NCBI GenBank assembly: GCA_016618085.1
Contig: JABLTG010000091.1
Location: 17,302-81,301, forward strand
Direction of reading: 5' to 3'
Length of the DNA: 64,000 bases
Source: Neovahlkampfia damariscottae
Taxonomy: Eukaryota; Heterolobosea; Selenaionea; Neovahlkampfiida; Neovahlkampfiidae
Shown: positions 5,533 through 62,227 of the stretch, in pieces
Layout: each line of letters starts with the position of its first letter
Position numbering within the stretch: position 1 is the first letter of the stretch
Made by a program: the position numbers and the translations under genes
The notes under the pieces: generated by a model
What the model was told of the DNA's origin: nothing
Seen by the model: the letters and a program-made list of their open reading frames with translations, nothing else
Database searches by the model: none

Positions 5533-6980
5533 ATGTCTTTGGAAGATTCTCATGATTTAAAAAGAAAATTCTCTCAAGATGATCTATCTAGTCCAAATAC
5601 TGAAAAAAAGAAAAAGAAATTACCAAAACCTGTACCTCAAGAAGTTGAAACTCCGAAGGTAACAAAATATAATATTTCAAAAAAATAAATAAATATATAG
5701 GCAGGTATAAAGATATTTCAATCTTTTGATGATGAAAATGATGTATTTGAAGATATAAAGGATTCAAGTATTAATAATAAGTCTATTTCACAACCAAATT
5801 ATCAATCTTTAAAAATTCATTGGTTTAATAATTATTATATTAATCATGTATAAGGGACCAGTAATTGAATTTAATGTTTAATTTTATTTGAAAAGACCAC
5901 CAAAAAATATTTTGATTACCAAAAAAAAACATGATGATGAAGTCAATGAAAAATTTGAAGAAATAATTAAATATTTTCAAGAAGAAAAGAAATGCACTGG
6001 TAAAATTTAATACATTTTTTATTTGAATTTTAGTCTACGTTGATCCTTATGTATATGAACAAGAAGATTATGATCACGTTGAAACTTATAGAGAAGAAGA
6101 TCATCCAATTTTACATAAAATTATTGATTTAGTAATTGTTTTAGGTGGTGATGGAACTATATTACATGTATCTAGTCAATTTCCAAATGCTGTACCACCA
6201 ATATTAGCATTTTCAATGGGTTCTCTTGGATTTTTAACTTCATTTGGTAATTAAAACATCATTAATAACCCTTTTCTTTTTTTTTTGAAGATATTAGTAA
6301 TTATAAAGAGACAGTTGAAAAAGTATTTAAAGAGCAAATGTACATGACATTGAGAAATAGATTATCATGTAAGATTATTCGAAAAGATGGAAAAGAAGAA
6401 GAACCATATCAAGTATTGAATGAATTAGTAATTGATAGAGGTTTGAGGTAAATTATATTATGCTTATTAAACATAAAGTCCATTTTTAACTGGTATTGAT
6501 TGCTTTATTTCAAATAAATTCATTACACAAATTCAAGCAGATGGATTAATCATTAGTACTCCAACAGGTTCTACTGCTTATTCAATGTCTGCTGGTGGTA
6601 GTATGGTTCATCCAAGTGTTAATGGAATTTTATTAACTCCAATTTGTCCTCATTCATTGAGTTTTAGACCTGTAAGTAAATATTTGAATCATTAACATGT
6701 AATATAGTTAATTTTACCAAATTCAATTGTTTTGCATTTAAAAATTAATGAAAATGCAAGAGCAACTGCTTATTGCTCATTTGATGGTCGTGGGAGACAA
6801 GAACTAATGAGAGGAGATAAAATTGAAATTAAAATTAGTCACTGGCCATTGCCAAATATCACAAAAACTGATCAAACTTCGGAATGGTTTTTAGGTTTGT
6901 CAAAATTATTACATTGGAATTTGAGAGAAACCCAAAAACCCATAAAAAATCATTCTGAACAAAGAATGAACTTTATGTGA
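5533..6980 (+). CDS. NADK: NAD kinase
   Basis: ATP-dependent NAD kinase producing NADP. After a lysine-rich N-terminus the conserved core is clear: [15 protein letters not shown] (the GGDGT motif), [19 protein letters not shown], and [17 protein letters not shown], followed by [12 protein letters not shown] and [10 protein letters not shown]. Seven introns are removed to obtain about 391 residues; one pair flanks a 6-nt exon at 5855-5860 that restores the tryptophan-rich WDQPPKNILI segment. Exon 1 is exactly 126 nt from the ATG at 5533. The gene ends in TGA. It resembles cytosolic animal NADK in the C-terminal LHWNLR region. Confidence 0.92.
5855..5860 (+). other. 6-nt microexon (GGACCA) in NAD kinase
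   Basis: Flanked by introns 5823-5854 (32 nt, GTTTAA...AAG) and 5861-5895 (35 nt, GTAATT...AAG). Splicing both gives TG-GGACCA-ACCACC, read as W-D-Q-P-P. Skipping it by one 73-nt intron would create an in-frame TGA. Read by eye, no transcript seen. Confidence 0.75.
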
Positions 6981-7068
6981 TTTTGATCAATAATTATTAT
7001 ATTTTTTTTTGGAACATCAAACTTTTGTCTTTCTTAATTTGACCAATCAAATAAGTCCACCTAAATTT

Positions 7069-8196
7069 ATGAACAATGTCGATGTTGAGTACTTTCCAAA
7101 ATTCTCAGAAGTTCCGACGTTTGAAAAATTAGATTTAGAAATACTAAAAATGTACGAAAATTTGATTAAGGAAACTGATACAACTGCAGATGAAAAAACA
7201 ATATTAGCAAACAAAGTTGAACCTCTTTTTATAAATGTTCAATCAAATCATGAAACACCAATTTGTTCACCAATTTTATCGGAAATTGAAACTCATAGTG
7301 TAGATTCACTGCCAAATGAGGAGAATTTATTTTTTGAAGAATTCGAAGGACTACGAAACTTTGTATCTGAACCAAGTCTGTTTGTTGAAGACAAACGAGA
7401 AAATTCATTTGTATCATTATTGAAAAAAACTTTTTCTATGAGAAAATCAACAGATATTAATCAAAAAAATAGAAAGACTCAAAAAAAAAGTGAATCTATT
7501 TCAAGTCCATCCAACGATGAGCCAATGTCAAAAAGTTCAAACTTTATAGAATTTGCAATTAAAAATTCAAATGAAAAATATGATTCATTTATTTCTCCAA
7601 TGTCTTCTCCACGAAAAAAAGGATCAACAGATTTCAGATCAATACTGATTAAAAAAGCGGAGAGAAATTACAAATCTTATACACCTTCTCCTAAACTATC
7701 ACCAAGAACTTTAGATCAAAGTTTAAATTCAGATTCAAGCGAGAATTCACCTCCACAATCATTGCTTTTGAAAAAAAGTATATCATCAATAAATCAACTA
7801 GAAATGAATAAATCAAATTCACCAAAGAGTTCAAGATCAAAATTTCAGAGTTCATTAGAATTTGGAAGATTAATTCAAGGTTCCCCAAAGATTAGTAGTA
7901 TACTACATAGACAAAGAAGAGTTAGATCACCAAAAACACCCAAATCTATGACACCACAAAATATGTCACCTCAAATTTCACCAAGGAAATTAAAAAAGAA
8001 TAATGTCAATTTACCACAAACTAATTCATTAAGAAATCATAAATCCAATTTTTTTCAACAAGTCAAAGATAAGTTATTGAACATTCAATGTGAAGAAATT
8101 CAAGAAATAAAAGAAGAATATTCTGATATTTTGGAATTAAATGTGTTTAGAGATTATAAAAATTTTGATGAAATAAGTTGGAGATTAGGATTGTAA
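7069..8196 (+). CDS. Ser/Pro-rich disordered protein with many SP/TP sites
   Basis: A single open exon of 375 residues. I place the start at ATG 7069 rather than the upstream TTG at 7009, because a CCAATCAAAT element sits at 7043-7052 and would otherwise lie inside the coding region. The middle (roughly residues 130-335) is low complexity and packed with minimal proline-directed kinase sites such as SPRKK, SPKLSPRTL, SPKTPKSMTPQ and SPQISPRK, several with a following basic residue as preferred by CDKs. The C-terminus is more hydrophobic and ends ISWRLGL. No known domain. A cell-cycle phosphoprotein is plausible but this is inference. Confidence 0.75.
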   Translation: MNNVDVEYFPKFSEVPTFEKLDLEILKMYENLIKETDTTADEKTILANKVEPLFINVQSNHETPICSPILSEIETHSVDSLPNEENLFFEEFEGLRNFVSEPSLFVEDKRENSFVSLLKKTFSMRKSTDINQKNRKTQKKSESISSPSNDEPMSKSSNFIEFAIKNSNEKYDSFISPMSSPRKKGSTDFRSILIKKAERNYKSYTPSPKLSPRTLDQSLNSDSSENSPPQSLLLKKSISSINQLEMNKSNSPKSSRSKFQSSLEFGRLIQGSPKISSILHRQRRVRSPKTPKSMTPQNMSPQISPRKLKKNNVNLPQTNSLRNHKSNFFQQVKDKLLNIQCEEIQEIKEEYSDILELNVFRDYKNFDEISWRLGL

Positions 8197-8213
8197 ATAT
8201 TGAAAAATAAAAT

Positions 8214-12014: not shown

Positions 12015-13523
12015 ATGAGTGGTGAAAAGAAACCAAAAAATTCTGAAAATTTTAAAATTGAAAAAGAAGAAGAATTGAGATTTGAGGTTGAACATAAAAT
12101 GAAGTGTCAAATTAAACTTATAAAAGGCAAAGCAGGTTTTCATCTTTTTTTTCAACTAAAAAAAAAAAAAAGAAATTTTTGGAACAGAAATTGGATTAAA
12201 TCATACATATACTATATCCGGAACAAAGTTAGCAATATTTACTTGGGAAGGTGCTGAAATAAATCTATCTGGTGATTATAAAAATGCTTACACAGCTGGA
12301 AATACACCAATGCCATCTTATATTGATGTAATCCATTATTTATTAATATTAATAATTAAAGTTACATTCAAAAATAGAACAAAATAGAATTAGAACAGGA
12401 AAAGGACAAAAAATAATGATTGCCGGAAATGTTGACACTGGTAAATCTACACTATGTAAAATTTTGGTTGCTTGGGCTGCGAGATTAGGTAAAAATCAAC
12501 CATTTTTAGTTGATTTAGATATTGGTAAGAGTGATTTATATATAAGTTTAATTTTTAAAAAAGGTCAAAATCAAATATCAATACCTGGAACTATATCTTG
12601 TATTCAAATTGAAGGTAGGTCAATAATTTACATAGTTTAATTCATTAAAAAGATCATGTTGATATTGAAGAAGGATTTTCTTTATCATCTCCAATCTCAT
12701 TTTTTTTTGGTCATGAATCACCAGCAAATAATATGAAACTTTATAAATTACAAATTGACAAATTATCAGAATATGTGTCATATAAAATGGATAAAGAACC
12801 TGGAAATAGTTGTTTTGTAAATCTCTTTATAATTTTAATTGATTTTTTAGATTGTATTTTTTTTTTTTTTTTCTAATTTTTGATTCAGAATACTTGTGGA
12901 TGGATTGAAAAAGGTGGTTATGATGTATTATGTCACACAGCAAAATCATTTTCAGTTGATCAAATTTTTGTAATTGACAATGATTTACTAGCTGCAAAAT
13001 TATCAAAAGATTTTCCAAAAATAAAAGTAGAAAAAATAATTAAAAGTGGAGGAGTAAAATAAAATAAACAATTAATAGGTCATTCTTCTAGGTCATATCA
13101 AGAAATAAAACATTTAGAAAATCAACTAGAATGGGAAAGATTCGTGAATATTTTTATGGTATTGAAGACAATTTATCACCACATTCACTTCATTTAAATT
13201 TTGATGAAATTGAAATTGGACAAGTAGGTACTTCATCATCAAAACAAACACCTTCATTCTTATTACCGATTGGACAAAAATCATCTTATGATCCAACTGA
13301 AGTTGAACCTGTTATCATTAATGAACAGTTAATGCATAGTATTTTAGCTGTTTCACAATCAAATGATTTGAATGATATTGCAAATAAACCAGTTTATGGA
13401 TATATTTATTGCACAAATGTTGATATGGAAAAGAAAACAATATCAGTATTATCACCTTCACCTGGAAAATTACCAAGCAAAATTTTAATTTTAGGTACAT
13501 TAAAATGGGTAGATCAATCATAA
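12015..13523 (+). CDS. CLP1: CLP1 polyribonucleotide 5'-hydroxyl kinase / cleavage factor
   Basis: CLP1 takes part in mRNA 3'-end cleavage (CF II) and tRNA splicing. After splicing seven short introns the product is about 417 residues, close to human CLP1 (425). Visible landmarks: EEELRFEVEHK, FGTEIGLNHTYTI, FTWEGAEINLSG, Walker A GNVDTGKST, VDLDIGQNQISIPGT, EEGFSL, INTCGWIEKGGY and KIREYFYG before the C-terminal beta domain ending LGTLKW. A 3-nt exon at 12851-12853 supplies the Ile of INTCGW. CCAATAAAA lies at 11985-11993. The stop is one base away from the stop of the convergent Nudix gene. Confidence 0.93.
12851..12853 (+). other. 3-nt microexon (ATT) in CLP1
   Basis: Introns 12817-12850 (34 nt, GTAAAT...TTTAG) and 12854-12888 (35 nt, GTATTT...TTCAG) leave only ATT between them. 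Including it gives C-F-I-N-T-C-G-W, matching the conserved V-I-N-T motif of plant and animal CLP1. Treating the region as one 72-nt intron would be longer than the other introns here and would delete the Ile. Confidence 0.65.
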
Positions 13524-14230: not shown

Positions 14231-15348
14231 TTATTCTCCAAATTCAATACTCAGATTATATAATCTGTAATTATCAAAATCTTGTTCAAATGTAAATTTA
14301 ATTGGTATTTCATCATTATCTGTCACATCAAATCCTTCAATACCTGGTAGTAGTATTACTGTTTGTTTCCAATGTGTTGGAGGATTAAAAGGTGATGTTG
14401 ATAAAATAAAATCATTAAAATAGACATCAAACCAAATTGAAATACCATTCATTGTCAAATTATTTTCATTTTTAATCTTAAATCTACTATTTGATTGAAT
14501 TAATCTTAACTCTTTCACTGAAATCTTCATTAAATCAATATCCAAAACTATTTCTGGTTTTGAAAGTAATTGATTTGTTGAAAGTACTCCAACATATGGT
14601 TTTGAAAATAAATCTTTTTCAAAAAAATTCCCTAGTCTTGAAAAATTCAATCCATGAACGTCGTTCCAATAAGAAACTTTCTCTGTAAATTCATTTTTCA
14701 TATTAACTGGTGAAGAAAAAACTTTTGCTCTGTTTGGAAATAAAATTCCATCCTTTTTTAACCAGGTATCTCTTCCAAATAAAACAGAATTTAACATTGA
14801 CTAAAAAAAAAAAAATGAAAAACTAATCTCACTAATTTACCTCATGGAACAAATAAAATCCCATCTTTAAAATATTAATCATTTTTTTTTGTAAACCCAT
14901 CTTTTTAAATTAGAATAATTGGAATAAAAAGTTACTCTGAAATAATTACATCAACTTTTTCTTTTAAAATAATTTCTTCGATTCTTCCATGAACAACTTC
15001 TACAATATTTGATAAACCATTGTCCTCAATAAGCTGAGAAGCAAGAGAATGAACTTCTGATGCTTCAACTGCATAAACCTTCTTGGCTTCTCCATACAAT
15101 GCTGAAAACATTGAAAGAATTCCTGTACCAGCACCTATATCTATAATATATTGGATATCAGATGCAATAATTTACATACCAAGTACAACTTTATCTTTGA
15201 AAAGGTTCTTGTTTTGAATAATAGCCTCTTTGTATCCATTTGTTCTTGGATCATCTTTTATCATCAAGGAATGAACATCTAAATCATTATAACTGAAAAA
15301 ATATTCTTGGTCTACTTCCAATTTTTCCAGTTCATTTTCTTCTTCCAT
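14231..15348 (-). CDS. Protein arginine methyltransferase (type I-like)
   Basis: A PRMT of about 323 residues. The Rossmann part shows SYNDLDVHSLMIKDDPRTNGY, VLDIGAGTGILSMF (SAM-binding motif I) and AVEASE (post-I). The double-E loop reads IISEWMGFYLFHESML, but only if a 4-nt exon (14897-14900) is recognised. The C-terminal barrel carries the THW loop (PPTHWKQTVILLP). The family methylates arginines in RNA-binding proteins and histones. It is a diverged second PRMT in this window next to the clearly PRMT1-like gene at 54746-55816. ATTGG lies at 15371-15375 upstream of the start. Confidence 0.9.
14897..14900 (-). other. 4-nt microexon (ATGG) in PRMT gene
   Basis: On the minus strand the introns 14901-14935 (35 nt, GTAACT...AAAAAG) and 14865-14896 (32 nt, GTTTAC...TAAAG) enclose ATGG. 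Splicing gives S-E-W-M-G, the invariant PRMT double-E motif; no other splice choice in this stretch restores it. Confidence 0.82.
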
Positions 15349-15429: not shown

Positions 15430-16191
15430 TTACAATAAAAGGCAAGTTGATTTTTTAGGTGGATCCGGTTTTTTAACAGCAGCGATGATTGCGGCTTGAA
15501 ATACTTTAGATACTCCTTCTCTTGTCATAGCACTACATTCGACGTAAGTTGAAGCACCAATTTTCTTTTGGAGTTCTTCTCCGTCTTTTACAGTCAATGG
15601 TTTTTCTCCTTTTTGCTCTAATGATTGTAAAGTTGTTTTATCTTTTTTTAAATCAATTTTTGTACCACAAAGGATTATAGGTACATTTGGACAACTGATG
15701 ACATTTGAGTCTTTAATAAAAAGAAACTTACTGGTGTTTAACTTCAGGATACCACTTTGTTTCTGCGTTGTCATATGAAGCTTTACTAACAACTGAAAAA
15801 CAAATAATGAATACATGAGTGCCTGGATAAGACAAAGGTCTAATATTTTTGTAACCTGTGGAAGAAAAATTAATATCTTGTTTGAAAACTAACCTTCTTG
15901 TCCAGCTGTATCCCATAAACCTAAAGTCATGTCTTTTCCGTCAACATTAACAACTTTATTGTAGTTATCGAAGATTGTTGGAATATATCTAAATTTAATA
16001 AAATTCTGAAGTTTCTTACTCATCTGGAAATTTATCTTGTGCATACGAAATTAAAAGGCAAGTTTTTCCTAAAAAGTGTTACATAACCTTGGTTTCTTAC
16101 CAACAGCACCATCTCCTACGACAACACCTAGAAGTTGTTAAAAAAAAAACTTTTCTTTACATTTTATTTCGTCGTCAATAATGTTACTCAT
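15430..16191 (-). CDS. Rac/Rho-family small GTPase
   Basis: A canonical Rho-family GTPase of about 195 residues in six exons. All G-boxes are intact: [14 protein letters not shown] (P-loop), YIPTIFDNY (switch I), [19 protein letters not shown] (switch II with the catalytic Gln), LCGTKIDL, and ECSAMTREG. The C-terminus has a polybasic/proline stretch and the CAAX box CLLL, predicting geranylgeranylation and membrane attachment. It would regulate actin through effectors. Introns split the P-loop, switch I and switch II regions. The start at 16191 ([11 protein letters not shown]) is set by the first intron joining to VVVGDG. Confidence 0.92.
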
Positions 16192-20542: not shown

Positions 20543-21613
20543 TTATTCTTTTTGATTTTTTTTCCATTCTAAAAATTCTTTAAATTGATTATAATTTTTA
20601 GAAATATCAATTAAAATATCAATAGCTATAATCTTATGAATTATTAAAGTTACAAGTAATAAAATGAAAAATATAAAAATGATATTTACAGATGAGAATA
20701 ATAGTATTTCATTTGCGAAATTTCCAACAAAAAATCCAATTGAACCAACTATTAAAAATAATATTTTTGGATTTTGATTTTTTTGTATTGATGTACTTTC
20801 GTTAAAAAGTTAAAATAATAATAATAATAATACGATATTATAATTGAAAATAAAATGGAAAGAAATAATTTTAAATCATCAAAAAAGTATTGTTTGATTA
20901 ATTTAAATAATTGAAAATTTGTTGAATAACTTAAAGATGCAATAAAAATTGATAAACAAATAAATATCCATCCATAAATTAACATTTGAATTTCAAATTT
21001 ATAAATTTCTTTAAATGATTTTAATTGTTCAATACCAGTTGTTGAAAGTGTTTCTGAAAAATGATTTGATTCTTCATGAATAGTTTTAGTTAAATCTTCC
21101 ATTCTTTTATCTAAAATACTTTCAATAATTTCAGATACTTTATGTCCACTATTTATTAATCCATTCTCAATTCTACTTCCTAATGATGTAAATGATCCTA
21201 AAAAGGTTTATAAAAATATTTGTTTGAATATTACTTTCTAAACTATATCCCCATTCACAAAAACTATCAAGTACCTAATTTTATATTTAAATTAAATTAT
21301 CTTTTTTTTTTTTACACCATCTTTAAATTTATTTCCAAATTCTGAAGCTGAATTTTTTATATTTTTACAAATTTCTTCTGTGCTATCTTGAACTGTACTT
21401 GTAATATCATCAGTTGCATTTTTTAGAGATTCTTCAACATATACACCAATAACTATTTGTTATGATTTTTATAATAAAACAAACCCTTTTAGAACGACGA
21501 CTTTAAAATGAAAAAAAAATTAAAACTTTAGCTGCTTCTTCTCCAAAAGATGAAGAACTTTTGACCAGGACCTGTGATGGAACTCTTGCTAATGCATCAA
21601 AAACGTAATCCAT
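20543..21613 (-). CDS. Multi-pass membrane protein, unrecognised
   Basis: Starts MDYVFDALARVPSQVL and has an N-terminal amphipathic helical region with repeated Glu/Ser/Asn (EESLKNATDDITSTVQDSTE). The C-terminal half has about four hydrophobic segments, including MLIYGWIFICLSIFIASL, LFLSILFSIIIS, FLIVGSIGFFVGNF and IIFIFFILLLVTLIIHK, ending with a charged EFLEWKKNQKE tail. Six or seven exons. A 42-nt intron that encodes a misleading poly-Tyr run near 20790-20830 must be removed to enter the last exon. One junction appears to need a 1-nt exon (21485). Family unknown. Confidence 0.68.
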
Positions 21614-27332: not shown

Positions 27333-28866
27333 ATGCTTGAAGAACCAATTCAAGGAACAATTGATTCAGAAGTACCATCTGGTCTTGGTTCAGTAAGTTA
27401 AATTAACATTATTTATAAAAGGAATTTGAAACAAATCCAATTGATGAAAGTCAAAATATTACTACCATAGAGAATGAAGAAAATACAAAATCTTTATCTG
27501 AAGACGAAGAAGAATCACCTTCCGCACAGTCATTTATATTTACAATATCAGAAGCAACAAAGAAACCAAAAGAAGGTATTACCTTGTCCTATTGGGTGTA
27601 TAACATTAAAGTTCAAACAACTTTGGAAAAATTTAAAGAAAAAGAGTTTAATGTTTGAATTTAAAATTTACAACTAAAATTTATAGGTTTGGAGAAGATT
27701 CTCTGATTTTGGTAAACAGAATTAAACATTAAATCAATTCATAAGAGTGGTATGTGTATTGTAGTACTTTTAAAATCTATCAAATAGGTTATTTCATGCT
27801 TTAGATGGTGAACACTTGGGTTTGATTATACCACCAATTCCAGAAAAAGATATATTTGGATCACTTGAAAAAATATATGAATTTGATAATTCATCATTGT
27901 TAGAATATAGACAAAGGGCACTATCAAAGTAACTTAATATTTACCCTCATTTTTTTTAGATTTTTATGTAAATATTTCAATATTAACTCTTATTTTCTAG
28001 TTCGTATTGGTGATCATTCTATTTTACAAAAATCTGTTCATCTTGAACATTTTTTGTTGACCAATGATAAAAAATTTAATGAAATAAAATCACAAAAAAT
28101 TGTAACAAAATATACATTACCAAGTATTTTTCAAATGTATTTAAAATAATTAGGTTCAATTGGATCATTTTTTAGGAGTAATAAATCAAAAGAAGATGAA
28201 TTTATTACTCAAACTAAAGAATTTCTTTTTAAACTTGAAGAGTTATTGAAACAATTAAAATATAAATTAGAAAATATGATAAAAGGGAGAGAAGAATTAA
28301 GTATATCAATGAAAGAATTTGGAATTTCATTTAATAATTTATCAATTTTAGAATCATCTTTTGATCAAAATGATTATTCAAAAAATTTGAAAAAGATATA
28401 TTTAAAAAGTGAAGAAATATCAGAAATTATGAAAGATCAAGGTAAAAAACAATCAATGCATATCATTGAAACATTACAATATTATCAGGGTATGATTACT
28501 TCAATTCATAGATCAATTAATATTATTAATTCTTTGAGGTTTGTTGATTTTCTAAATTTAATAATTTAAAGATTAAATCGTGATGATCATTTAGATTTAA
28601 TTGAAAATTCAAAGAAAAGTAAATCTGATCCTGAAATTGAAAAATTAATATTTCATTCAAAAAATATGTACAAAGTAAATGAATATTCATTTTAACATTT
28701 TAAAAAGGAAGCAATGGAAAATTTTATGGTAGATTATGAAAAATTTGGTGCAGAAAGATCATTAGATTTTAAAGTAATGATTGATCAATTCATTTCATTA
28801 GAATTAGATTATTCATCAAATCTTGAAATGACATGGTCATCTTTGATAGATTCAATTGAAAAATAA
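27333..28866 (+). CDS. Sorting nexin (PX-BAR)
   Basis: A PX-BAR sorting nexin of about 420 residues, resembling SNX1/2/4/5-type proteins of endosomal tubules. The acidic N-terminus leads into a PX domain with NVWRRFSDFEWLFHALDG, GLIIPPIPEKD and EYRQRALSKFLCKY, i.e. the phosphoinositide-binding RRF and the PPxP turn. The BAR part follows (FFRSNK... EFLFKLEELLKQLKYKL; IIETLQYYQGMITSIHRS). Eight or so introns; a 4-nt exon at 27746-27749 is needed for the E-W of the PX domain. ATTGG lies at 27314-27318, some 15 bases before the ATG. Confidence 0.86.
27746..27749 (+). other. 4-nt microexon (AGTG) in sorting nexin
   Basis: Between introns 27712-27745 (34 nt, GTAAAC...CATAAG) and 27750-27787 (38 nt, GTATGT...AATAG). 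Splicing gives GATTTTG-AGTG-GTTATTT, read D-F-E-W-L-F, the conserved continuation of RRFSDF in PX domains. Confidence 0.78.
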
Positions 28867-33998: not shown

Positions 33999-35700
33999 TC
34001 CTCTTTTAATAATGTATTTAGTCCACCATTATTCTGAATAGAATCCATATTTTCTTCATCTTCTTTTGGAATGTCCAAATAATCAAATATGAGATTTGAT
34101 AAATCTTTAATTCTATTATTTGAATTAAAACTATTTGAGAATATGAAAAATTGAATAAAAATTATCAAAATTAAAAAAATTAAAAAATAAATCAATATCT
34201 GTGATTTCAATGAATATATTAATATTTCATTTTTTTGATTCATTGAATTGATTGTATTATTCATTAAACTTAATTCAAAAAATAATTCTTTTTTAAATTC
34301 ATTTTTTAAATTTAAAATCTCTTTTCTTTTTTTTTGATTAAAGTTTAAAATGTTTTATCTTACGAATGATGTTGTTTTAAATTTTTTAATTTCTTCAAAT
34401 AAGATGTGTCCAATGATGAAAATTTTGAAATAATTTGATTATATTTTTGTTCGTTTCTATTCAATTGATTTTTAAATATTGAAATTCTTTTTTCAATTTT
34501 CTTTATATTTTCAACAAAGATTTGATGTTTCATTTCTTGATTTTTAACTATTTGGGGAATAAAAAAAGAAAAAGTATTTACTTTTTTGTAACAAAAACTA
34601 AAAATGATTAAGAATATATTTTTTGTAGTTACTTTTAAAACATTTAATGGTTTCTTATTCTTCATTTTTAATTTTTTTGATTTCAAAATATCAATTAAAT
34701 TCATTGGTTCATTTTTAAATTTACAAATATTTTCTTTTGATTTTAATCTAACATTACAATTCTTTTCTTCAAAATTAAATTCATTTCTTGAAAAAGATGA
34801 AAAATTTGAATTAAAAAATGTTGGTGATATTTTTGAATGTTGATTGGATAGAGTTGATTTTGAAGTTGATGAAATGATTAAAGTAGAAGATGGTTTTGTT
34901 TGTATTGAATTATCATTAGATTGAGTTGAATTTAAATTTTGATTAATTATTGTTGATGAATTATCATCATCATCATCATCATCATCTATTTTTTCTTCTT
35001 GTTTTAAGTCTTCAATCAAAGTTAATCCATAAACTCTTAATAATGATAATGTACAATAAAATTCATCTAAATGATATGATAAAAATACGAATTTTAAATA
35101 TCTAGTTATTTCTGGTTTTTTTAATGAAAATGTTTGAATTAATCTTCTTTTATCATCTGCATGAAATTTATCAAATAAATCCCATGATTTTGTTGGATAT
35201 TTAGTTGAACCATAAACTTCAAATAATTTAATAGATGATGAAAAATATTCATCATTTCTAATTTGAAAGGAATGCTAAAAAAAAAAAAAAGAATTTGAAT
35301 TAAATAATAAAATGGTACCATTGATATTTCTTCACTCAATTCAACAATGAAATAATTTTCAGATAAATTATTAGTTGGATCTATATGATTATATTTTTAA
35401 GAGATAAAAGTACTAACCCCAATATAAATAACTATTCTTATCTTCGATCAAAATTTTAGAAGTCTTCTTCATTGTTGAACTAGATTCTAATATTTTACTA
35501 CCTGCATCTGCAGAAGCCTTATTTATGATTTAGAATTAAATTAAATACCTAAATTAGTTTAGAAAGAGTTTCAAAAATACAAAATTGAAATTGGTTTCTC
35601 GTTTTTTATCTTCAACCATTTTTTTGACTTCACTCATTTCATATATACTTGAATTTATGATCAAAATGAGAAATATGAATATTAATCTTCGCAGCATCAT
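33995..35700 (-). CDS. SUN-like (Slp1/SUCO family) ER membrane protein
   Basis: A SUN-domain protein of the Slp1/osteopotentia group that acts in the ER with EMP65-like partners. A signal peptide (MMLRRLIFIFLILIINSSIY) is followed by the SUN-like fold: NFASADAGSKILESSSTMKK, ENYFIVELSEEIS, RNDEYFSSSIKLFEVYGSTK, YPTKSWDLF and LSYHLDEFYCTLSLLRVYG. A coiled-coil and one transmembrane segment (ILIYFLIFLILIIFIQFFIF) near the C-terminus complete it. Exons are small: a 16-nt exon lies at 34582-34597, and the 63-nt intron at 35518-35580 contains an internal AG|GT that divides it into two normal-sized introns. I choose the methionine at 35700 because ATTGG lies at 35732. Confidence 0.83.
34582..34597 (-). 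other. 16-nt microexon in SUN-like gene
   Basis: Bounded on the minus strand by introns with GTAACT...TTTTTAG and GTAAAT...AAATAG. It shifts the phase from 0 to 1 and links NVLK to KNQEMKH in frame as a continuous helix. Either skipping it or retaining its flanks breaks the frame or introduces a stop. Confidence 0.65.
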
Positions 35701-37311: not shown

Positions 37312-37923
37312 ATGGTGTCCATAATGTCCTTTTTTTTTTTAGCATATATATTCACTTTTGTGCTTGCTTGCGGGTTATGTGTTCTTTCAGGATACATTGT
37401 AAAACCAAAAAAAAAAAAAATTAATTTCCTAAATTAGTTACTTATCGTTTATGACTATGAAGATGGTCAATATGGATCCATTGATTGTGCCAAATCCATC
37501 AATCAAGTTGTTCCTGTTGAATATGTTTTACTTGGAATCACGTTTTTCGTTTTATTATTTTCACCAGGTATAGTGCTCTTTTGAAAGATTAATTTTTTTA
37601 GATCGTTGGTTACTTTTAATGCTTTTACCATTCATTGTATGGTTATTTTACAAGTAGTTTTTGAAATATTTAATGTTTTCTAAGATATTTTACTGGTAAT
37701 TCTTGGGTGAAACATGATAATCTTTATCAAGATAAATTTAAACTGAAAGTTGAAAATTTTGTAAAGATTGGATGGACAAGGTACTGTGGTTGTTATTATA
37801 TTTTTAAAAATATTTTCAAGTATTATAATGTTCTGTTATTTCTTCTGTTTTGTCAGAGATATCATTTATTTAGTTCAAGAATATAGTCCACATGTTCAAA
37901 GTCATTTAAATTCAAGACTATAA
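37312..37923 (+). CDS. Cornichon/Erv14-family cargo receptor
   Basis: COPII cargo receptor of the ER with three to four membrane segments, about 155 residues. It shows the order of the family: an N-terminal hydrophobic helix ([19 protein letters not shown]), the loop [20 protein letters not shown], then [17 protein letters not shown] and [14 protein letters not shown], a loop ending in [12 protein letters not shown], and a last helix [18 protein letters not shown]. Four introns of about 31-40 nt separate these parts. CCAAT lies at 37262-37266, shared with the possible divergent gene on the other strand. Confidence 0.85.
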
Positions 37924-37964
37924 TAAACATTCATTTTCAATTTTATTGGTTGAATTTGTTGAGG

Positions 37965-39764
37965 ATGAAAAAAATTTTGAACCCATTGTGTAATTTCAAT
38001 AAAAAGTATTATACAAAAAGAATAATACCTGATGGACCAAACCTTCAACATTTTATAACTAATTCAATGATTATAAAAAATGAAGAAGAAAAACAAGTTG
38101 TTGATTTGAATAGTTCAAAAAAGATATATATAGAAACATATGGCTGTCAAATGAATGTCTCTGACACAGAAATTGTTACAAGTATTTTAAAGAAATCAGG
38201 ATATAGTTTTATTGATTCTGATTTAAATGTATTCATTTTTTTTATTTTTTTAATGACTTTAAAAAGGCTGATGTTATTCTAATAAATACATGTGCAATTA
38301 GAGATAATGCAGAACAAAAAATATGGAATAGATTAAAAGATATTAAAGGAATATCAAAAAATAAAAAACAAAAACCAATTGTTGGTATTCTTGGTTGTAT
38401 GGCAGAAAGATTAAAAAAAGATTTACTTGAAAAAGAACAATTAGTTGATTTAGTAATGGGACCAGATTCATATCGAGATTTACCTAATATTATATCAAAT
38501 CAACAAAAACCTGCAATTAATGTTATGCTTTCTTTAGATGAAACTTATGCTGATATATCTCCTGTCAGAAGATCAAATAATAATATATCTGCATTTGTTT
38601 CAATTATGAGGTAATTTGGATTCCAATATATTTTTAAAAATGAAAAAGAGGATGTGATAATAGTAAATTTAAATTATATATTAATAATATTGGATTCAAG
38701 TGTGTTCCTATTGTATTGTTCCATTTACAAGAGGAAGAGAAAGAAGTAGACCAATGAAATCAATTTTAGAAGAAGTAAAACAATTATCAAATGAAGGATA
38801 TAAAGAAATTATACTTTTAGGTCAAAATGTAAATTCATATAGAGATATATCAGAAGAGAATGAAAAAGAAAAAGAAGAAACAAAATTATCAAATGAAGGA
38901 TTTAAAACTATTTATAAAAAGAAGAAAGGTGGTATTAGATTCACTGAATTAATTGATAATGTTTCAAAAATAAATGAAAATATTAGAATTAGATTTACAT
39001 CACCACATCCAAAAGGTATAAAAAAGAGAAATATTAATTAATTTAGATTATCCATCTGATGTAAGTATTTATATGATTGTTTAAATGAATTTAAAAAAGT
39101 TAATTGATTTAATTAAAAATAGACCAAATATTTCTAAATTTTTACATATTCCAGCACAAAGTGGAAATTCAAATGTTTTAAATAGAATGAGAAGAGGATA
39201 TTCAAGAGATTCTTATTTAAAATTATTAAATGAAATTAGAGAAAAGATACCATATGTTACATTTTCAAGTGATTTTATTTCTGGATTTTGTGGTGAAACA
39301 GAACAAGAACATCAAGATACTATTAGTTTAATGGAACAAGTTAAATTTGATCAAGCATTTATGTTTTCATATTCATTAAGAGAAAAAACACATGCACATA
39401 GAAATTATATGTAAAAAAAGAATATATTTTAATAAGTAGAGATGATATTTCAAATGAAATAAAAAAGAAAAGATTAAATGAAATTATTCAAACATTTAGA
39501 ATGAATTTAAATTTAAAAATTAAAAATGAAATTGGAAATATTCATTTAGTTTTAATTGAAGATTTTGCAAAAAAAGATGAAAATTATTTATTTGGAAAAT
39601 CTGATTCAGGTAGAAGTGTAATGATTAAAAATGATGATGAAATTAAATTTGGTCAATTCGTAGCAGTTGAAATTATTGATATCTTAAAATCAACTTTAAT
39701 TGGAAAAGTTATTGATAAAAATATATCTATTAATCAATTTTTTAAAAAATATAAAAATTTATAA
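37965..39764 (+). CDS. CDK5RAP1: CDK5RAP1/MiaB-type tRNA methylthiotransferase
   Basis: Radical-SAM enzyme that adds the 2-methylthio group to N6-isopentenyl-adenosine-37 of (mitochondrial) tRNAs. The N-terminus ([20 protein letters not shown]) is basic with no acidic residues, as in mitochondrial presequences. The MTTase domain has [26 protein letters not shown] and [11 protein letters not shown]; the radical-SAM cluster reads [39 protein letters not shown] and [12 protein letters not shown] follow, and a TRAM-like C-terminus. About 525 residues. The cluster motif is only complete with a 14-nt exon (38649-38662); a second 14-nt exon is at 39047-39060. Confidence 0.92.
38649..38662 (+). other. 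14-nt microexon carrying the first radical-SAM cysteine
   Basis: Introns 38611-38648 (38 nt) and 38663-38700 (38 nt) flank A-GGA-TGT-GAT-AAT-A, read G-C-D-N and split codons. It joins M-R to M-C-S-Y-C, giving C-x3-C-x2-C, so this exon encodes an essential iron-sulfur ligand. Confidence 0.85.
39047..39060 (+). other. 14-nt microexon in CDK5RAP1
   Basis: Introns 39016-39046 (31 nt, GTATAA...TTTAG) and 39061-39099 (39 nt, GTAAGT...AAAAAG) flank 14 bases encoding D-Y-P-S-D, placing SPHPKDYPSDLIDLI in one frame as in other CDK5RAP1 proteins. Confidence 0.82.
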
Positions 39765-48872: not shown

Positions 48873-50782
48873 ATGAAAAGAACATTAACTATATTATATG
48901 GTAGTCAAACTGGATGTGCTGAAGAGGTTGGTGAAAGAATATATCGATTAGGAAAGAAGAGGTGTTTTGATTGTAGTATTTATTCAATGGATGAATATGA
49001 TTATAAGGTGATATATTTAATAATATTTAATAAATAAAGAATAAATTAGAAAAAGAAATATTTATAATATTTGTTTGTTCAACTACTGGACAAGGTGAAC
49101 AACCTGATAATATGAAAAACTTTTGGAATTATTTATTACAAAAGAAATTAAAAGATGATTATCTATCTAATTTAACCTATACTGTATTTGGTTTAGGTGA
49201 TTCAAGTTATCCACTTTATAACTTTGTTTCAAAAAAATTATTTAGAAGAATAAAACAATTAGGTGGAAATGAATTAATTCAAAGAGGTGATGGTGATGAT
49301 CAAAGTGAATTTGGATATGAAGATGGTTTAAATATATTTTTAGATCAATTATGGAAACAAGCATTCATTAAATTTCCATTAAATAAAAATGATAAAATTA
49401 TAAGTGATGATATTTTAGAAGAATCAAAAATGATTATAAAATATATTGAAGAAGAAGAAGAAGAAGAAAAAGAAGAAGAAAAAGAAAATAATTTAAAATT
49501 AAAATTAATTAATAATGAAAGAGTAACAGATAATGATCATTTTCAAGATGTTAGAAGTATTAAATTTGAAATAATAAATAAAGATAATATATTATCTAAT
49601 AATAAACCAATTCATGAACCAGGTGATATATTAGGTATTAAACCAAAAAATGATAATGATAATATTAAATTAATATTAAAAAGATTAAATTTAAAAGGTG
49701 AAAAAAGAATTAAAATTATAAATAGAGAAAATAATGAAATAATATTTAATAATATATCATTTTTTGATTTATTTAAGAATCATCTTGATATTCAATTTGT
49801 ACCTAGAAAAAGATGTTTTGAAATATTAAAACATTTTACAAATGATGAAAAAGAAAAAGAAAGATTAGATTATTTTTCATCTAATGAATCTATTGTAATG
49901 AATTATATTTGTATAATATTTAAAATATTAAAATAGGATGATTTATATAGATATTCAATACGTGAAAAGAGATCATTTATTGAAGTATTAAATGATTTTC
50001 CAAATGTTAATTTAAATTTAAATTATTTATTTGATTTAATTCCATTTATTAAATTTAGATACTTTTCAATATCATCATTTTTAAAAAATGAAATAGAAAT
50101 GTAAAATAATATGTAATGATGAGTATTAACAAATATTAGATTAGTTGCAATTATTAAATTTGAAACACCTTATAAAAGAATTAGATTTGGTTTATGTACA
50201 AAATACTTGACAAATTTAAATAAAAATGAAATATTATTAAATTGTATTTTAAAGAAGGGATCTATTAAATTACCACAAAATGAATCAATACCAATTGTAA
50301 ATGAATTATTAATATATACTAAATATGATAATATAGATTATGGTAATACATATATTCATAATTAATATTAGATTGGACCTGGTACAGGTGTTGCACCATT
50401 TAGATCATTCATCCAATCAAATAAAAAAAGAAAATTAATATTATTTTTTGGAAATAGAAATGAAAAAAAAGACTTCTTTTTTAAACATGAATTTGAATCT
50501 AATCCAAATTTATTATTATTTAAATCATTTTCAAGGGATGGAAATAAAAATAAATATGTTCAACATTCAATAAAAGAAAATGAAAAATTAATTTTAGATT
50601 TAGTGTTGAATCAAAATGCATATATTTATGTTGCAGGTAATTCAAAAGAAATGCCAAGAGATGTACAAGATACATTTGAATTAATATTAAAAAATAATTT
50701 AAATATTTCATTGGAAGAATCAAAGAAATTCATTTTAAAGTTACAATCAAAAAAAAGATATCAAGTTGAAGCATGGAATTAA
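48873..50782 (+). CDS. NDOR1: NADPH-dependent diflavin oxidoreductase (NDOR1/Tah18)
   Basis: Electron donor for cytosolic iron-sulfur assembly (with the CIAPIN1/Dre2 partner). An FMN flavodoxin domain comes first: TILYGSQTGCAEEVGERIY, FVCSTTGQGEQPDNMKNFW, VFGLGDSSYPLYNF. The FAD domain has RYFSISSF and the NADPH part GPGTGVAPFRSF, FFGNRNEKKDFFF and YIYVAGNSKEMPRDV, ending with VEAW. About 574 residues, near the family's 590-620. A 6-nt exon at 50337-50342 restores PIIMIGPGTG. Five introns. ATTGG lies near 48827. Confidence 0.92.
50337..50342 (+). other. 6-nt microexon (ATTATG) in NDOR1
   Basis: Introns 50297-50336 (40 nt, GTAAAT...ATATAG) and 50343-50371 (29 nt, GTAATA...TATTAG) flank ATTATG. 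Splicing gives P-I-I-M-I-G-P-G-T-G, the conserved start of the NADPH-binding loop (PVIMxGPGTG in relatives). Confidence 0.82.
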
Positions 50783-53101: not shown

Positions 53102-53232
53102 TTTGTTACAATTATAGAAAAGAAACTTGTTAAAAATATTGACCAAAAATTCATAGGTTTGAACTTCAATTCCTCTTTTTTATTTTTATTGGTTGGTGGG
53201 AAAAGAAAAAAAAAAAAGAAAAAGAGAATAAA

Positions 53233-55816: not shown

Positions 55817-55821
55817 TCCTT

Positions 55822-58530: not shown

Positions 58531-58709
58531 CAAGTTTGAATGTTTTCTTATTGGTTCAAAAAAAAAAAAAGTAGAGAGAAAAAAAAGAGATAAACATGAT
58601 TGAAAAAAGTGAAAGATTTGTTGTTTTTGTCAATCATCTTTAAAGAATAGTCAAAAAATGAATAAAATTTTGAAATATATTTAAAAAAATGAGGTTTATT
58701 CGAAAATTT

Positions 58710-58952: not shown

Positions 58953-59070
58953 TTTAGATTCTTTTCTGATTGGACGAAAAAAATTAAAAAAATCTGGAGA
59001 ATAAATAACCAATCATTTTTCTTATTGAATCCAAAAAATTTGTTTTATTTTGTCACGGTTAAAATTATAA

Positions 59071-60097
59071 ATGGTAAAGAGAGAAGAAAAGACGAAAGAA
59101 CAATTGAGAGTTGATCCAAAATTAATTGCAGTTGATGCTAAATTAATAAAAAATAAAGCAAAAAGAAGTGAAGTGAGAGAAAAACAAAATGTAATAAAAA
59201 AACAACAAAAATCTTTAAAAAGAAAATTAAATAAAGAAGATCCAAATCATGTTCCACAAAAAGTAATTATGCAAGAAGATAGAAGAGAAAAAGATGATAC
59301 TATTGTAGCAGAAGAAGATGATTTAACAGAAATTAAAGAAGAAGAAGAATGTGATGAATTTTTTGTAACTAATAATTTTAAAAATATTAATTATTTAAGG
59401 ATTATTTTAAAGATAATAAACCACCAAAATTATTAGTTACAACAGCTATTAATTTTGTTCAAAAGAAACAACCATCTAAATATTTAATTCAATATTGTAG
59501 AGAATTATTATTAATGTTTCCAAATTCACATTATTGTAGAAGAAAGAATTTTACAATTGAAAAAATACAAAGTTTTGGAATTGAAAATGATTTTACAGAT
59601 ATTATGATTATTGGAGAAAGAAATAATTTTGTTGATTCAATGACATTAATTCATTTACCAGAAGGACCATGTTCATTTTATAGAATTAGTAATATGATTT
59701 CATCAAAAAAAATAAAAAATCATGCAACACCTTCTGATTATTTTCCTGAATTAATTTTAAATAATTTTAATACAAGATTAGGTTTAAGAATTGCAAGAAG
59801 TTTTAATTCTTTAATACCACAAAATCCAGAATTTAAAGGAAGAAGAGTAATTACATTTCATAATCGTAATATTTATTTATTTATTTTTAAACATTAAAAG
59901 AAAGAGATTTTGTATTTGTTAGACATCATCGTTATGAATTTGAAAATAAAGATTCTTGTATTTTACAAGAAATAGGACCATCATTTACAATGAGATTAGA
60001 AAAAGTACAACTTGGTAAATTTGATGGTAAATTTGGTGAATATGAATGGTATCATAGTGCTAAAATGGATACAAGTAGAAGAAAGTTTTATTTATAA
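59071..60097 (+). CDS. RPF1: Ribosome production factor 1 (Brix domain)
   Basis: A Brix-domain 60S biogenesis factor of about 318 residues. The N-terminus is basic (KNKAKRSEVREKQNVIKKQQ). The Brix fold shows LLVTTAINFVQKKQPSKYL, FPNSHYCRRKNFTIEKIQSF, GPCSFYRISN, GRRVITFHN, then QRDFVFVRHHRYEFENKDS, QEIGPSFTMRLEKVQLGKFD and GEYEWYHSAKMDTSRRKFYL, which is the diagnostic Rpf1 C-terminus. Two introns of about 34-35 nt. The stop is 6 bases from SF3A1. Confidence 0.93.
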
Positions 60098-60103
60098 ACA
60101 ATA

Positions 60104-61442
60104 TTATTTTTTCTTTTTTTTTGTTGGTTCTTCATCTTTGTTTGATGATGTAAATATATCTTTTCTTTTTTTTGCAAATTCTGTAATTGAATTTGCTAAT
60201 TCATCATCTTTTGCAATATTTGTTGTTTTAAATTTTTCATTTTCTCTTTCTTTTTGTTCAGACCATTTTGGATTAATTAATTGTACTCTCAAATGTTCAT
60301 TTAATTGATTCATTGGTATTAATTCACCTGTTTTTGGATCTTTAAATATTTCTTCTTTCTTTTTTTGTATTGGTTTCTTTTTAATATAATTCTTTTTAAT
60401 TTTTATATTTTCTTCTTCATCTTCTTCAATATCCATATCTTCTTCTGATTCATTTTGTTTTTCATTATCTTCTTCTTCTTCTTCTTCTTCTTCTGATTCA
60501 TTATTTATTTCATTAAATGTATTTTGAATTAAAGAATCAATTGGATTTATATTTGAATTATTATATAATATATTATCAATAGATGATATTTCTTCCATTT
60601 TTTCTTCTTCTTCTTCTTCTTTTTGATAATTTGTCATATTTGACATAAAATCTTCTAATGTAAAATCAATTTTTTCAACTAAAATAAAATCTGACCAATC
60701 TATTTCATTTTTAATTTCAACTTGATTATTTTTTTCAATTCTTAATTCATTTAAAAATATTTCCCATTCTCCTTTTGAATAAATTAATTGTAATAATTGC
60801 AATTTATTATTTGAATATTTAATTAAATCTTCAATAGTTGATTTTGGTGGAATTAATATTCTTTTATAAATCTCAGTTAATTTTGTAAAAAATGAAAAAT
60901 AACGATGTTGTACTTTTAAAAAATCAAATTGTGAATTTCTACTTTCTCTTCCAGCTAAAGCAGATAAAAATGGTCTTCCATTTCTTGCAACATATTGTGA
61001 TGTTACTGTATTTATTAGAGTTATACATATTTACTTACATTTTATTAAATCTAGTTCAAATGGTTTCATTCCTTCTGGTACTTGTAATCCATAATGATAT
61101 ACTAAAGGGTCTTTTTTTGGTCTATTTCTTTGAATAGCTGTTGTTTTTTTTGATATATTTTGTGTAACTTGTTTCTTTGGTTTTGATACTTCTAAGTTTG
61201 GATTCTTTTTAAAATCTTCAATCCTCATTTTATAATATGAATGGTACGGGTTTTCATTCATTATAAAACCAAATTTAGTTTTACTTCCTTCATTTTTTAA
61301 TATTTTTTTTTCAAAATCTAAGAGAAGTCAAAAGAAATATCTGATTAGATTTACCTTCTCCATTTTTGGCAACATATTGTGCAGCAGTATCTACAACTGT
61401 TCTCAGTTCTGGTGGTGGATAAATTATACCAATGGATGCCAT
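60104..61442 (-). CDS. SF3A1: Splicing factor SF3A1 (U2 snRNP)
   Basis: SF3A1/Prp21 component of the U2 snRNP. Two SURP modules are visible: IIYPPPELRTVVDTAAQYVA and later TSQYVARNGRPFLSALAGRE with the following LKVQHRYFSFFTKL. The middle is acidic (poly-Glu runs). The C-terminus carries EIFKDPKTGELIPMNQLNEH, VQLINPKW and AKDDELANSITEFAKKRKDI. The protein ends in a lysine tract and lacks the C-terminal ubiquitin-like domain of animal SF3A1, as in yeast. About 420 residues, three exons. ATTGG lies near 61490. Confidence 0.92.
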
Positions 61443-61621
61443 CTATTTGTTTCTTTTACCTTGTGTTCAGTTGAAAATTTGAACACTTTGATTGGTTAAA
61501 AATTAGAAAATAAATAAAATCTGTTTTTACTTTAGTTTTCTAATAATTTCAAAAAAGTTGATTCAATAAATATCGTATTTTTTTTAACCAATCACAAAAA
61601 AAGAAAAAAAAGAAAAGACTG

Positions 61622-62227
61622 ATGGAGTTTGGAAAAGTAAATCATAAAATAACTCAAATACCTAGGACTATGATTGTACAATTGATGAAGAAGTTGGGAA
61701 AAGTTTTAAAAAATTAGTTAGACAAGAATCTTTATGTAAACAAAAAAATTATTCACAAATAAAAATCAGCTTGTTTGATTTTAAAAATTGATATGAAATC
61801 TAGAACTGTGGTAGTTGATGATTTCCTTGAAAACACAAATTGGGATGATATTCAAGAAGAAATGAGTGAAACTGCACCTAGATTTTTATTAGTTATTTCA
61901 CCTATTGTTCACAAAGATGGTAAAAATATATATTCATAGTGCTAATATCAATGTAGACAGAAAATCATATCCTTTAGTTCAAATTTATTATAGTCCAGAA
62001 GGTAATATTTACTTTTTTTTTTTTTCAATTCCAAATTAGGTTGTGCAACTGAAGTAAATTCATTTTAAAATTTTAATATTTGACAGCTCAACATGTTATA
62101 TTCAAGAATGAAACCAATTGTTGAAAAAAAATTTAACTTACAGTACACATTCACAGAAAGAGACTCAGAAGAACTCAGTGAAGATTGGTTATTGACTAAA
62201 TTAAATTTAAAACATATAAAAAAATAA
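61622..62227 (+). CDS. GMF: Glia maturation factor (GMF), ADF-homology protein
   Basis: An ADF/cofilin-fold protein that debranches Arp2/3 actin networks. About 145 residues from six exons: MEFGK then DYDCTIDEEVGKSFKKLVRQ, ISLTVVVDDFLENTNWDD, PRFLLVISPIVHKDDRKSYP, LVQIYYSPEG, CATE, LNMLYSRMKP and SEELSEDWLLTKL. It follows GMF-beta along its whole length. A 14-nt exon lies at 62040-62053. An upstream CCAATCAC box is near 61590. Confidence 0.88.
62040..62053 (+). other. 14-nt microexon in GMF
   Basis: Flanked by introns of about 38 nt (GTAATA...AATTAG) and 33 nt (GTAAAT...GACAG). It encodes the remainder of G plus C-A-T-E, matching G-C-K-P-E of animal GMF. Confidence 0.8.

What the first reader, a model, noticed from the sequence alone, without database searches (positions are those of the whole stretch)
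5823..62086. A genome full of ultra-small exons (3, 4, 4, 6, 6, 14, 14, 14 and 16 nt, perhaps 1 and 0)
In at least eight unrelated genes, restoring an invariant protein motif requires an exon of 3-16 nt flanked by two normal 29-40 nt introns. The tiny pieces carry essential residues (PRMT SEWMG, radical-SAM first Cys, NDOR1 IM-GPGTG, PX-domain E-W). Nine such exons in 64 kb is very dense. Exons of 3-6 nt cannot be defined by conventional exon definition, so splicing must work by intron definition, possibly stepwise. Whether a dedicated mechanism exists is inference.
Basis: partly seen in the sequence, partly recalled or inferred. Interest (0 to 1): 0.88.

Follow-up and report, generated by a model that had tools for sequence, protein, structure and literature searches.

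The report
Tiny exons between tiny introns
Genes of this single-celled eukaryote are cut by introns of about 35 letters that sometimes leave coding pieces of only 3 to 14 letters between them; these pieces encode conserved amino acids, and they are about as common as randomly placed introns would make them, which suggests that its splicing machinery sets no lower limit on exon size.

Summary
Nine exons of 3, 4, 4, 6, 6, 8, 14, 14 and 14 nt, each between two GT-AG introns of 29-40 nt, lie in seven window genes (NAD kinase, CLP1, PRMT, PX/sorting nexin twice, CDK5RAP1/MiaB twice, NDOR1-type reductase, GMF). Each restores conserved residues; per site 0-10 of 1000 shuffled gaps did as well. Its 16-nt exon is unproven; its 1-nt exon fits the frame but has no homologue to test it; its 0-nt exon is explained as well by one 63-nt intron. 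Four more (5, 11, 11, 14 nt) turned up in 173.8 kb elsewhere in the same 20.4-Mb genome. EukProt's gene models include the two 14-nt exons checked but miss the 4-nt and 3-nt exons checked, losing the PRMT SEWMG motif. The density needs no special mechanism: random intron placement predicts 11.9 ± 3.2 exons of 1-16 nt; 13 are verified. Best reading: stepwise intron definition within a tight intron-length class (249 of 259 at most 45 nt), so that skipping would need a 67-96-nt intron. No RNA was available. Constitutive microexons are known in plants; the lineage and the compact double-intron module appear new.

The parts
5823..5895 (+). NAD kinase gene: intron 32 nt (5823-5854), microexon GGACCA 5855-5860 (6 nt), intron 35 nt (5861-5895); gives LKIHW-DQ-PPK
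   Evidence: coordinates; alignment to PDB NAD kinase 9cr4 (RLTWNKSPK); shuffles 3 of 1000; Pfam uninformative here (71.7 vs 71.7 bits); one non-canonical single excision ties (43 vs 43)
12817..12888 (+). CLP1 gene: intron 34 nt, microexon ATT 12851-12853 (3 nt), intron 35 nt; gives SCF-I-NTCGW
   Evidence: CLP1_P 177.4 to 170.2 bits without it; residue before NT[CS]GW is I or V in 80 of the 82 relatives with that motif, of 119 examined; shuffles 3 of 1000; 0.0 nats ab initio under a flat length prior; missed in EukProt P0241; an unconstrained single excision scores 54 vs 53 by inserting a long stretch
14865..14935 (-). PRMT gene: intron 35 nt (14901-14935), microexon ATGG 14897-14900 (4 nt), intron 32 nt (14865-14896); gives SE-W-MGF; next exon is 24 nt (14841-14864)
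   Evidence: SEWMG in 118 of 119 relatives (the miss, P0134, is a C-terminal fragment); PDB alignment; shuffles 1 of 1000; Pfam uninformative; missed in EukProt P0121, which reads the second intron as protein
27712..27787 (+). PX/sorting-nexin gene: intron 34 nt, microexon AGTG 27746-27749 (4 nt), intron 38 nt; gives SDF-EW-LF; upstream exon is 25 nt (27687-27711)
   Evidence: PX domain 64.6 to 35.7 bits when both microexons of this gene are left out; alignment; shuffles 10 of 1000
   Evidence: alignment; shuffles 3 of 1000; 10.5 nats ab initio; one non-canonical single excision ties (42 vs 42)
38611..38700 (+). CDK5RAP1/MiaB gene: intron 38 nt, microexon AGGATGTGATAATA 38649-38662 (14 nt), intron 38 nt; carries the first Cys of CxxxCxxC
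   Evidence: RGCxxxCxxC in 119 of 119 relatives; Radical_SAM 92.5 to 79.9 bits without both 14-nt exons; shuffles 0 of 1000; present in EukProt P0001
39016..39099 (+). same gene: intron 31 nt, microexon ATTATCCATCTGAT 39047-39060 (14 nt), intron 39 nt; gives SPHPK-DYPSD
   Evidence: HPK followed by DF in 119 of 119 relatives (DY here); alignment; shuffles 1 of 1000; present in EukProt P0001
50297..50371 (+). NDOR1/CPR-type reductase gene: intron 40 nt, microexon ATTATG 50337-50342 (6 nt), intron 29 nt; gives IPI-IM-IGPGTG
   Evidence: PIIMIGPGTG exact in PDB relative 7sux; NAD_binding_1 45.8 to 43.1 bits; shuffles 2 of 1000; 0.0 nats ab initio under a flat length prior
62002..62086 (+). GMF (ADF/cofilin family) gene: intron 38 nt, microexon GTTGTGCAACTGAA 62040-62053 (14 nt), intron 33 nt; gives SPE-GCATE-LNMLYS
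   Evidence: Cofilin_ADF 75.1 to 63.2 bits; alignment to glia maturation factor beta 1v6f; shuffles 0 of 1000
34548..34632 (-). candidate 16-nt exon 34582-34597 in a Sad1/UNC (SUN) domain gene; unproven
   Evidence: 1.2-5.6 nats ab initio; outside the Sad1_UNC match
21453..21526 (-). candidate 1-nt exon (21485) in a gene without a family above cut-off; keeps the frame but untested
   Evidence: 16.3-20.8 nats ab initio
35518..35580 (-). claimed 0-nt exon: two abutting introns (32 + 31) or simply one 63-nt intron
   Evidence: 0.0 nats difference under a flat length prior, 3.5 under the learned one

Best explanation
These are constitutive coding microexons of 3-14 nt left between ordinary spliceosomal introns of about 35 nt. 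Introns sit with little regard to exon length, so where two fall close together a tiny exon remains. The spliceosome recognises each intron as a unit (U1 at the 5' site; a branch site of TTAAT/TTAAC type about 10-13 nt before the end). Because the 3' site of the first intron and the 5' site of the second are only 3-14 nt apart, the two introns are removed one after the other. Skipping is disfavoured because it would need a 67-96-nt intron, outside the 28-45-nt class that holds nearly all introns. Shown here: the exons by homology, their residues, the intron-length class, no clear excess or depletion. Inferred: intron definition, stepwise removal, constitutive inclusion, the branch site, the length class as guard against skipping.
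For: Nine of nine window cases: two introns plus microexon beat every GT-AG single-intron reading, at the model's own sites. Pfam loses 2.7-28.9 bits in the five window genes where a model covers the place (MiaB, SNX, CLP1, GMF, NDOR1) and 8.0-21 bits in four other loci (L006 10.5, L012 21, L015 8.0 with generic WD40, L019 16.5). PDB alignments put the residues on conserved positions; relatives have the motifs. Of 259 introns with both neighbouring exons of 30 nt or more, 249 are at most 45 nt and only four (73, 81, 94, 95) fall in the 67-96-nt skipping range. Verified microexons: 13 against 11.9 ± 3.2 expected; of 1-6 nt, 6 against 4.5 ± 2.1. Introns beside predicted microexons (17 upstream, 18 downstream, unproven ones included) have mean lengths 34.6 and 33.9 against 34.9 nt, and like donor scores. 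Ten of 13 lengths are not multiples of three. Three U1 copies aligned have the standard 5' end ACUUACCU. A WW + five-FF protein of PRP40/TCERG1 type is encoded. In C. elegans a microexon loses its need for PRP-40 when its upstream intron is made very short (PMC8378409).
Against: No RNA evidence. Acceptors of the introns downstream of microexons are slightly weaker (p = 0.02, uncorrected). Gene models are home-made and contain errors (a 39-nt in-frame CLP1 intron was missed, Rac and PRMT were fused, the SNX gene was run past its likely end), and the random-placement test rests on them; microexons the finder misses would raise the count. The window alone leans to an excess (1-6 nt: 5 against 2.2, reached in 6.7% of simulations), and with unproven exons counted it shows 13 against 6.5 (1.2%). 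A non-canonical single excision ties for NADK and SNX 8 and scores one point higher for CLP1. Ab initio support alone is weak for several (0.0 nats flat prior for NDOR1, CLP1, L006).
Confidence: 0.72

Rival explanations
1. Each site is one longer intron (67-96 nt) and the proteins simply lack the residues.
For: EukProt's model reads CLP1 that way (SCFNTCGW) and its PRMT model lacks SEWMG. For NDOR1 and CLP1 the single intron keeps the frame and is as good ab initio under a flat length prior (0.0 nats). Four of 259 introns do have such lengths.
Against: It deletes SEWMG, the first radical-SAM cysteine and the PX E-W, shifts the frame in ten of the 13 verified cases, and lowers Pfam scores where a model covers the place.
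Confidence: 0.03
2. A dedicated microexon system (special enhancers, an SRRM-like factor or a variant U1) enforces inclusion.
For: U1 copies differ in sequence (L025 against L026 and L027); a WW/FF protein of PRP40/TCERG1 type exists.
Against: Flanking introns look like the others in length and donor score and the number needs no special support. SRRM_C gave no hit, but the control genomes were silent too, so that search says nothing.
Confidence: 0.1
3. Microexons are alternatively spliced switches, as in neurons.
For: Small in-frame exons (3, 6, 6 nt) could be optional without a frameshift.
Against: Only 3 of 13 verified lengths are multiples of three, and the residues tested are near-invariant in relatives.
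Confidence: 0.06
4. Clusters arose by a directed process, such as tandem duplication of an intron or insertion of new introns beside old ones, so tiny exons are not chance by-products.
For: Window lean to excess. Protein predictions of close relatives run through the PRMT and CLP1 places without a break (P0143, P0152, P0242), so these introns may be recent.
Against: Adjacent introns around 17 predicted microexons are only slightly more alike than random pairs (4.35 vs 2.86, sd 5.03); verified counts over both samples match random placement.
Confidence: 0.1
5. The gaps are removed at DNA level (as internal eliminated sequences in ciliates), not by splicing.
For: AT-rich 28-45-nt inserts resemble short eliminated sequences (recalled).
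Against: Donor consensus beyond the imposed GT (A at +3 in 206 of 251, A at +4 in 176 of 251), G nearly absent at -3 of the acceptor (1 of 251), TTAAT peaking 10-13 nt before the end, U1 genes present.
Confidence: 0.01

Closest known systems
Constitutive plant microexons of 1-15 nt (PMC8831610 and, for the Arabidopsis APC11 1-nt exon, PMC4674806; passages read)
   Same: Tiny exons needed for the protein, often missed by annotation; flanking introns thought to be removed one after the other.
   Different: Different lineage; both flanking introns here are 28-44 nt, so that intron-microexon-intron spans only 67-96 nt. Many plant microexons are conserved across vascular plants; here close relatives may lack the introns.
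1-nt exon of CYP621A in Fusarium (PMC12940212, abstract read)
   Same: Inferred from frame and a conserved motif.
   Different: One gene family, confirmed by reads; here 13 homology-supported sites in 238 kb, not confirmed by reads.
Neuronal microexons with PRP-40/PRPF40A dependence (PMC8378409, passages read)
   Same: Too small for exon definition; intron definition proposed; a very short flanking intron removes the need for PRP-40.
   Different: Those are regulated, with long introns; these look constitutive in short introns.
Very short introns of ciliates (PMC5014332, search listing with start of abstract) and of Acrasis kona, 9-95 bp (PMC11589745, passages read)
   Same: Very short introns in protists.
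   Different: The listing and passages I saw say nothing of microexons.

Membership tests
Constitutive microexons (plant type) | internal exon of at most 15 nt between two GT-AG introns | tested here: met
   13 sites of 3-14 nt, by homology and sequence, not RNA
Constitutive microexons (plant type) | needed for reading frame or conserved protein residues | tested here: met
   Pfam uninformative for PRMT and NADK
Constitutive microexons (plant type) | inclusion shown in mRNA | not testable with these tools
   no transcripts of this organism at hand
Constitutive microexons (plant type) | microexon and flanking introns conserved among relatives | tested here: inconclusive
   protein predictions of relatives at 67-71% identity (P0143, P0152, P0242) run through without a break; their DNA could not be read
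Regulated neuronal microexons | length a multiple of three, optional | tested here: not met
   3 of 13 lengths are multiples of three; optional use not testable
Regulated neuronal microexons | SRRM3/4 eMIC domain | tested here: inconclusive
   SRRM_C no hit, controls silent as well
Recursive splicing / zero-nt exon | AG|GT ratchet point used inside a longer intron | tested here: inconclusive
   35548/35549 has AG|GT but one 63-nt intron fits as well under a flat prior
U2-type spliceosomal introns | GT-AG ends with donor and branch-site consensus, U1 snRNA | tested here: met
   GT and AG were imposed by the finder; U1 scores 58.2-68.1 bits, under Rfam's 69.5
Minor (U12) introns | U12-type donor and branch site | not tested
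   the gene finder admits GT donors only

The most novel reading that the evidence does not exclude
In this lineage exon length is unconstrained down to one or two nucleotides: a genome of several hundred to about two thousand constitutive microexons in which intron, microexon and intron together fit in 67-96 nt, so that two introns share the space of one assembling spliceosome, and in which a tight intron-length class alone secures inclusion.
Probability: 0.35. Interest if true: 0.68.

Novelty: new variant of a known kind. Interest (0 to 1): 0.5.

Why it matters
Exons under about 50 nt are reported to splice poorly and often to be skipped where exon definition rules (passages in PMC8378409 and PMC4674806). 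Here exons of 1-6 nt are about as frequent as random intron placement predicts (6 verified, 4.5 ± 2.1 expected). If RNA confirms this, exon length is not limited by the splicing machinery as long as introns are short and uniform, and the organism becomes a natural test of stepwise intron definition. It is also a practical warning: EukProt's models lose a conserved motif of PRMT and a residue of CLP1.

Tried and rejected
A chain of five consecutive 3-nt exons predicted in L010 (7591-7730, -) was rejected: each gains only 0.0-1.7 nats, and the only Pfam hints of that protein are ankyrin matches below cut-off, lying after the chain. Locus L010 was dropped whole; introns over 48 nt were treated there as gene breaks. 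Dropped as unproven: exons of 0, 1, 2 (872-873, partial gene), 6 (53123-53128, after a 124-nt pseudo-intron) and 16 nt, all in the window. One search is an earlier version of the null that kept their introns (12.4 ± 3.3 for 13); one search replaces it. Tandem duplication of introns: no clear support. U6 and SRRM_C searches were silent in the controls too. Organism: the SSU rRNA search did not complete. Of three single-gene trees, CLP1 (22 rows) groups it with Acrasis kona and metagenomic rows (100/99), PRMT (30 rows) leaves it with metagenomic rows only, and the MiaB tree (26 rows) does not put it with Acrasis; I say only possible heterolobosean relative. One search stopped with a script error after three cases and was replaced. 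Literature on microexons in protists (open PMC papers only): no listed paper, as far as its title and the start of its abstract show, describes dense microexons in a protist. Three were opened: on Creolimax (PMC4739763), which names microexons of 3-15 nt only as part of its alternative-splicing pipeline; a parasite review (PMC4015677), which concerns schistosomes; and a Tetrahymena paper (PMC3274533), which has a mapping option of that name (passages read).
Full report
Setting. The window is 24% G+C, dense with genes on both strands, and lies in a held genome of 20.44 Mb in 307 contigs (contig C298, 17302-81301). Its right end runs into TTTGGG-type repeats like a telomere. A CLP1 tree groups it with Acrasis kona and metagenomic rows (100/99); PRMT and MiaB trees do not. 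A heterolobosean relative is possible, not shown.

Gene models. I trained a small Viterbi gene finder (codon usage, GT-AG introns of 20-130 nt, no lower limit on exon length) on the window and 18 further stretches (L003-L020, 173.8 kb): 142 genes, 322 introns. Of 259 introns whose neighbouring exons are both 30 nt or longer, 249 are at most 45 nt and 251 at most 50; the other eight are 51, 57, 63, 73, 81, 94, 95 and 128 nt, some of them probable model errors. Donors favour A at +3 and +4 beyond the imposed GT; TTAAT peaks 10-13 nt before the 3' end; three aligned U1 copies begin with the standard ACUUACCU.

The microexons. One search lists predictions and one search gives coordinates of the 13 that homology supports. 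In the window: NADK 6, CLP1 3, PRMT 4, SNX 4 and 8, MiaB 14 and 14, NDOR1 6, GMF 14 nt. Outside, the finder predicted four exons of 16 nt or less apart from the L010 chain, and all four are supported by Pfam: L006 11 nt (DUF229 protein), L012 5 nt (trehalase, IPGGRFREFYYWDSY), L015 14 nt (WD40 protein), L019 11 nt (short-chain dehydrogenase, YGNFGQANYA).

Tests. (1) Pfam bits with the microexon residues and after an in-frame deletion, which favours the rival: radical SAM 92.5 to 79.9, PX 64.6 to 35.7, CLP1_P 177.4 to 170.2, cofilin 75.1 to 63.2, NAD_binding_1 45.8 to 43.1, trehalase 480 to 459, generic WD40 70.8 to 62.8 (the best-scoring propeller model, WD40_Prp19, below its cut-off either way, 120 to 75.7), adh_short 142.6 to 126.1, DUF229 179.9 to 169.4. 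PRMT and NADK are uninformative: Methyltransf_25 rose from 32.7 to 33.9, PRMT_C 89.8 to 89.7, NAD_kinase 71.7 both times. MiaB and SNX lost both of their microexons at once in this test. (2) PDB alignments place the residues on conserved positions in seven genes. (3) Among the 119 other proteins listed in each search, SEWMG occurs in 118 PRMTs (the miss is a fragment), RGCxxxCxxC in 119 MiaB proteins, and I or V before NT[CS]GW in 80 of the 82 CLP1 proteins with that motif; 37 lack the motif string. (4) For each window site I compared the best one-intron and two-intron splicing against one homologue peptide, then shuffled the gap 1000 times: the two-intron score was reached in 1 (PRMT), 3 (NADK), 2 (NDOR1), 10 (SNX 4), 3 (SNX 8), 0 (MiaB a), 1 (MiaB b), 3 (CLP1) and 0 (GMF); in nine of nine the model's own sites were best. 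A two-intron path better than the best one-intron score arose in 3-534 of 1000 shuffles, so structure alone proves little. (5) If any frame-keeping single excision with any ends is allowed, it stays below the two-intron score in six cases, ties in NADK and SNX 8, and scores 54 against 53 in CLP1 by inserting a long stretch; the ends used there (GT..TT, TA..AT, TT..CA) fit no splice-site class that I recall.

Existing annotation. EukProt holds proteins evidently of this genome (96-99% identical to my models, differing by splicing). P0001 contains both 14-nt exons. P0121 misses the 4-nt exon, reads the second intron as protein and lacks SEWMG. P0241 misses the 3-nt exon. So three genes were checked and two of four microexons are in the models; the other nine sites were not checked.

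How many, and why. Placing each gene's introns at random within its own coding sequence gives 5.8 ± 2.2 exons of 1-16 nt in the window (9 verified; reached in 10.5% of 4000 simulations), 6.0 ± 2.3 outside (4 verified) and 11.9 ± 3.2 together (13 verified; 40%). For 1-6 nt the totals are 4.5 ± 2.1 and 6, in the window 2.2 ± 1.4 and 5 (6.7%). With unproven exons counted, the window shows 13 against 6.5 (1.2%). I see no depletion of tiny exons and no clear excess. The outside sample, which was not chosen for microexons, extrapolates to about 470 in the genome (128-1,204), both together to about 1,117 (594-1,910).

Mechanism. Introns next to predicted microexons have ordinary length and donor score; the acceptors of the downstream ones score slightly lower (p = 0.02, uncorrected). 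Adjacent introns are not clearly duplicates. Protein predictions of relatives at 67-71% identity run through the PRMT and CLP1 places (P0143, P0152, P0242), and P0123 carries eight extra residues right after WMG that would fit a 24-nt in-frame intron (inference from proteins only). I favour plain intron definition, one intron after the other, with skipping barred by intron length: the skip would span 67-96 nt. Precedents: consecutive removal in plants (PMC8831610), intron definition combined with recursive splicing proposed for the 1-nt exon of Arabidopsis (PMC4674806), and release from PRP-40 dependence by a short upstream intron in C. elegans (PMC8378409); passages read. Order of removal, inclusion rate and the guard against skipping are inference.

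Limits. No RNA was available. The 16-, 1- and 0-nt claims stay open or have an equal simpler reading. The models contain errors, for example a missed 39-nt in-frame CLP1 intron (12523-12561) that EukProt's model leaves out.

Noticed in passing
window 63841-64000: Telomere-like array: 24 copies of TTTGGG, mixed by eye with TTTGGGG and GGGATTT units, at the window's right end.
   Followed up: partly
window, 21 sites; upstream of starts in window and L loci: ACCAATCA is enriched (21 against 3.5 expected, 0 of 100 shuffles), and CCAAT/ATTGG lies within 120 nt upstream of 91 of 107 predicted starts against 29 of 107 stretches inside the same genes: perhaps a core promoter element.
   Followed up: partly
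window 12523-12561: CLP1 contains a 39-nt intron that is in frame and free of stops; my finder read it as coding, EukProt's model P0241 leaves it out.
   Followed up: partly
L010 7591-7730 (-): Six GT-AG spacings of 28-37 nt separated by five 3-nt pieces in a row; weakly supported and probably a gene-finder bridge, but odd.
   Followed up: partly
L025, L026, L027 and G000 C275:26043-26203: Four U1 snRNA matches; of the three aligned, L026 and L027 are alike and L025 differs.
   Followed up: no
window about 37314-39764: EukProt protein P0001 fuses a cornichon-family protein with its neighbour CDK5RAP1/MiaB, probably an annotation error (cornichon from the Pfam accession, name recalled).
   Followed up: no
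window 14841-14864, 16101-16127, 27687-27711; L006 5373-5394; L019 1568-1592: Further small exons of 22-27 nt that also carry core motifs (PRMT MGFYLFHE, Rho/Rac P-loop, PX VWRRFSDF, DUF229 MSDHG, SDR YGNFGQ).
   Followed up: partly
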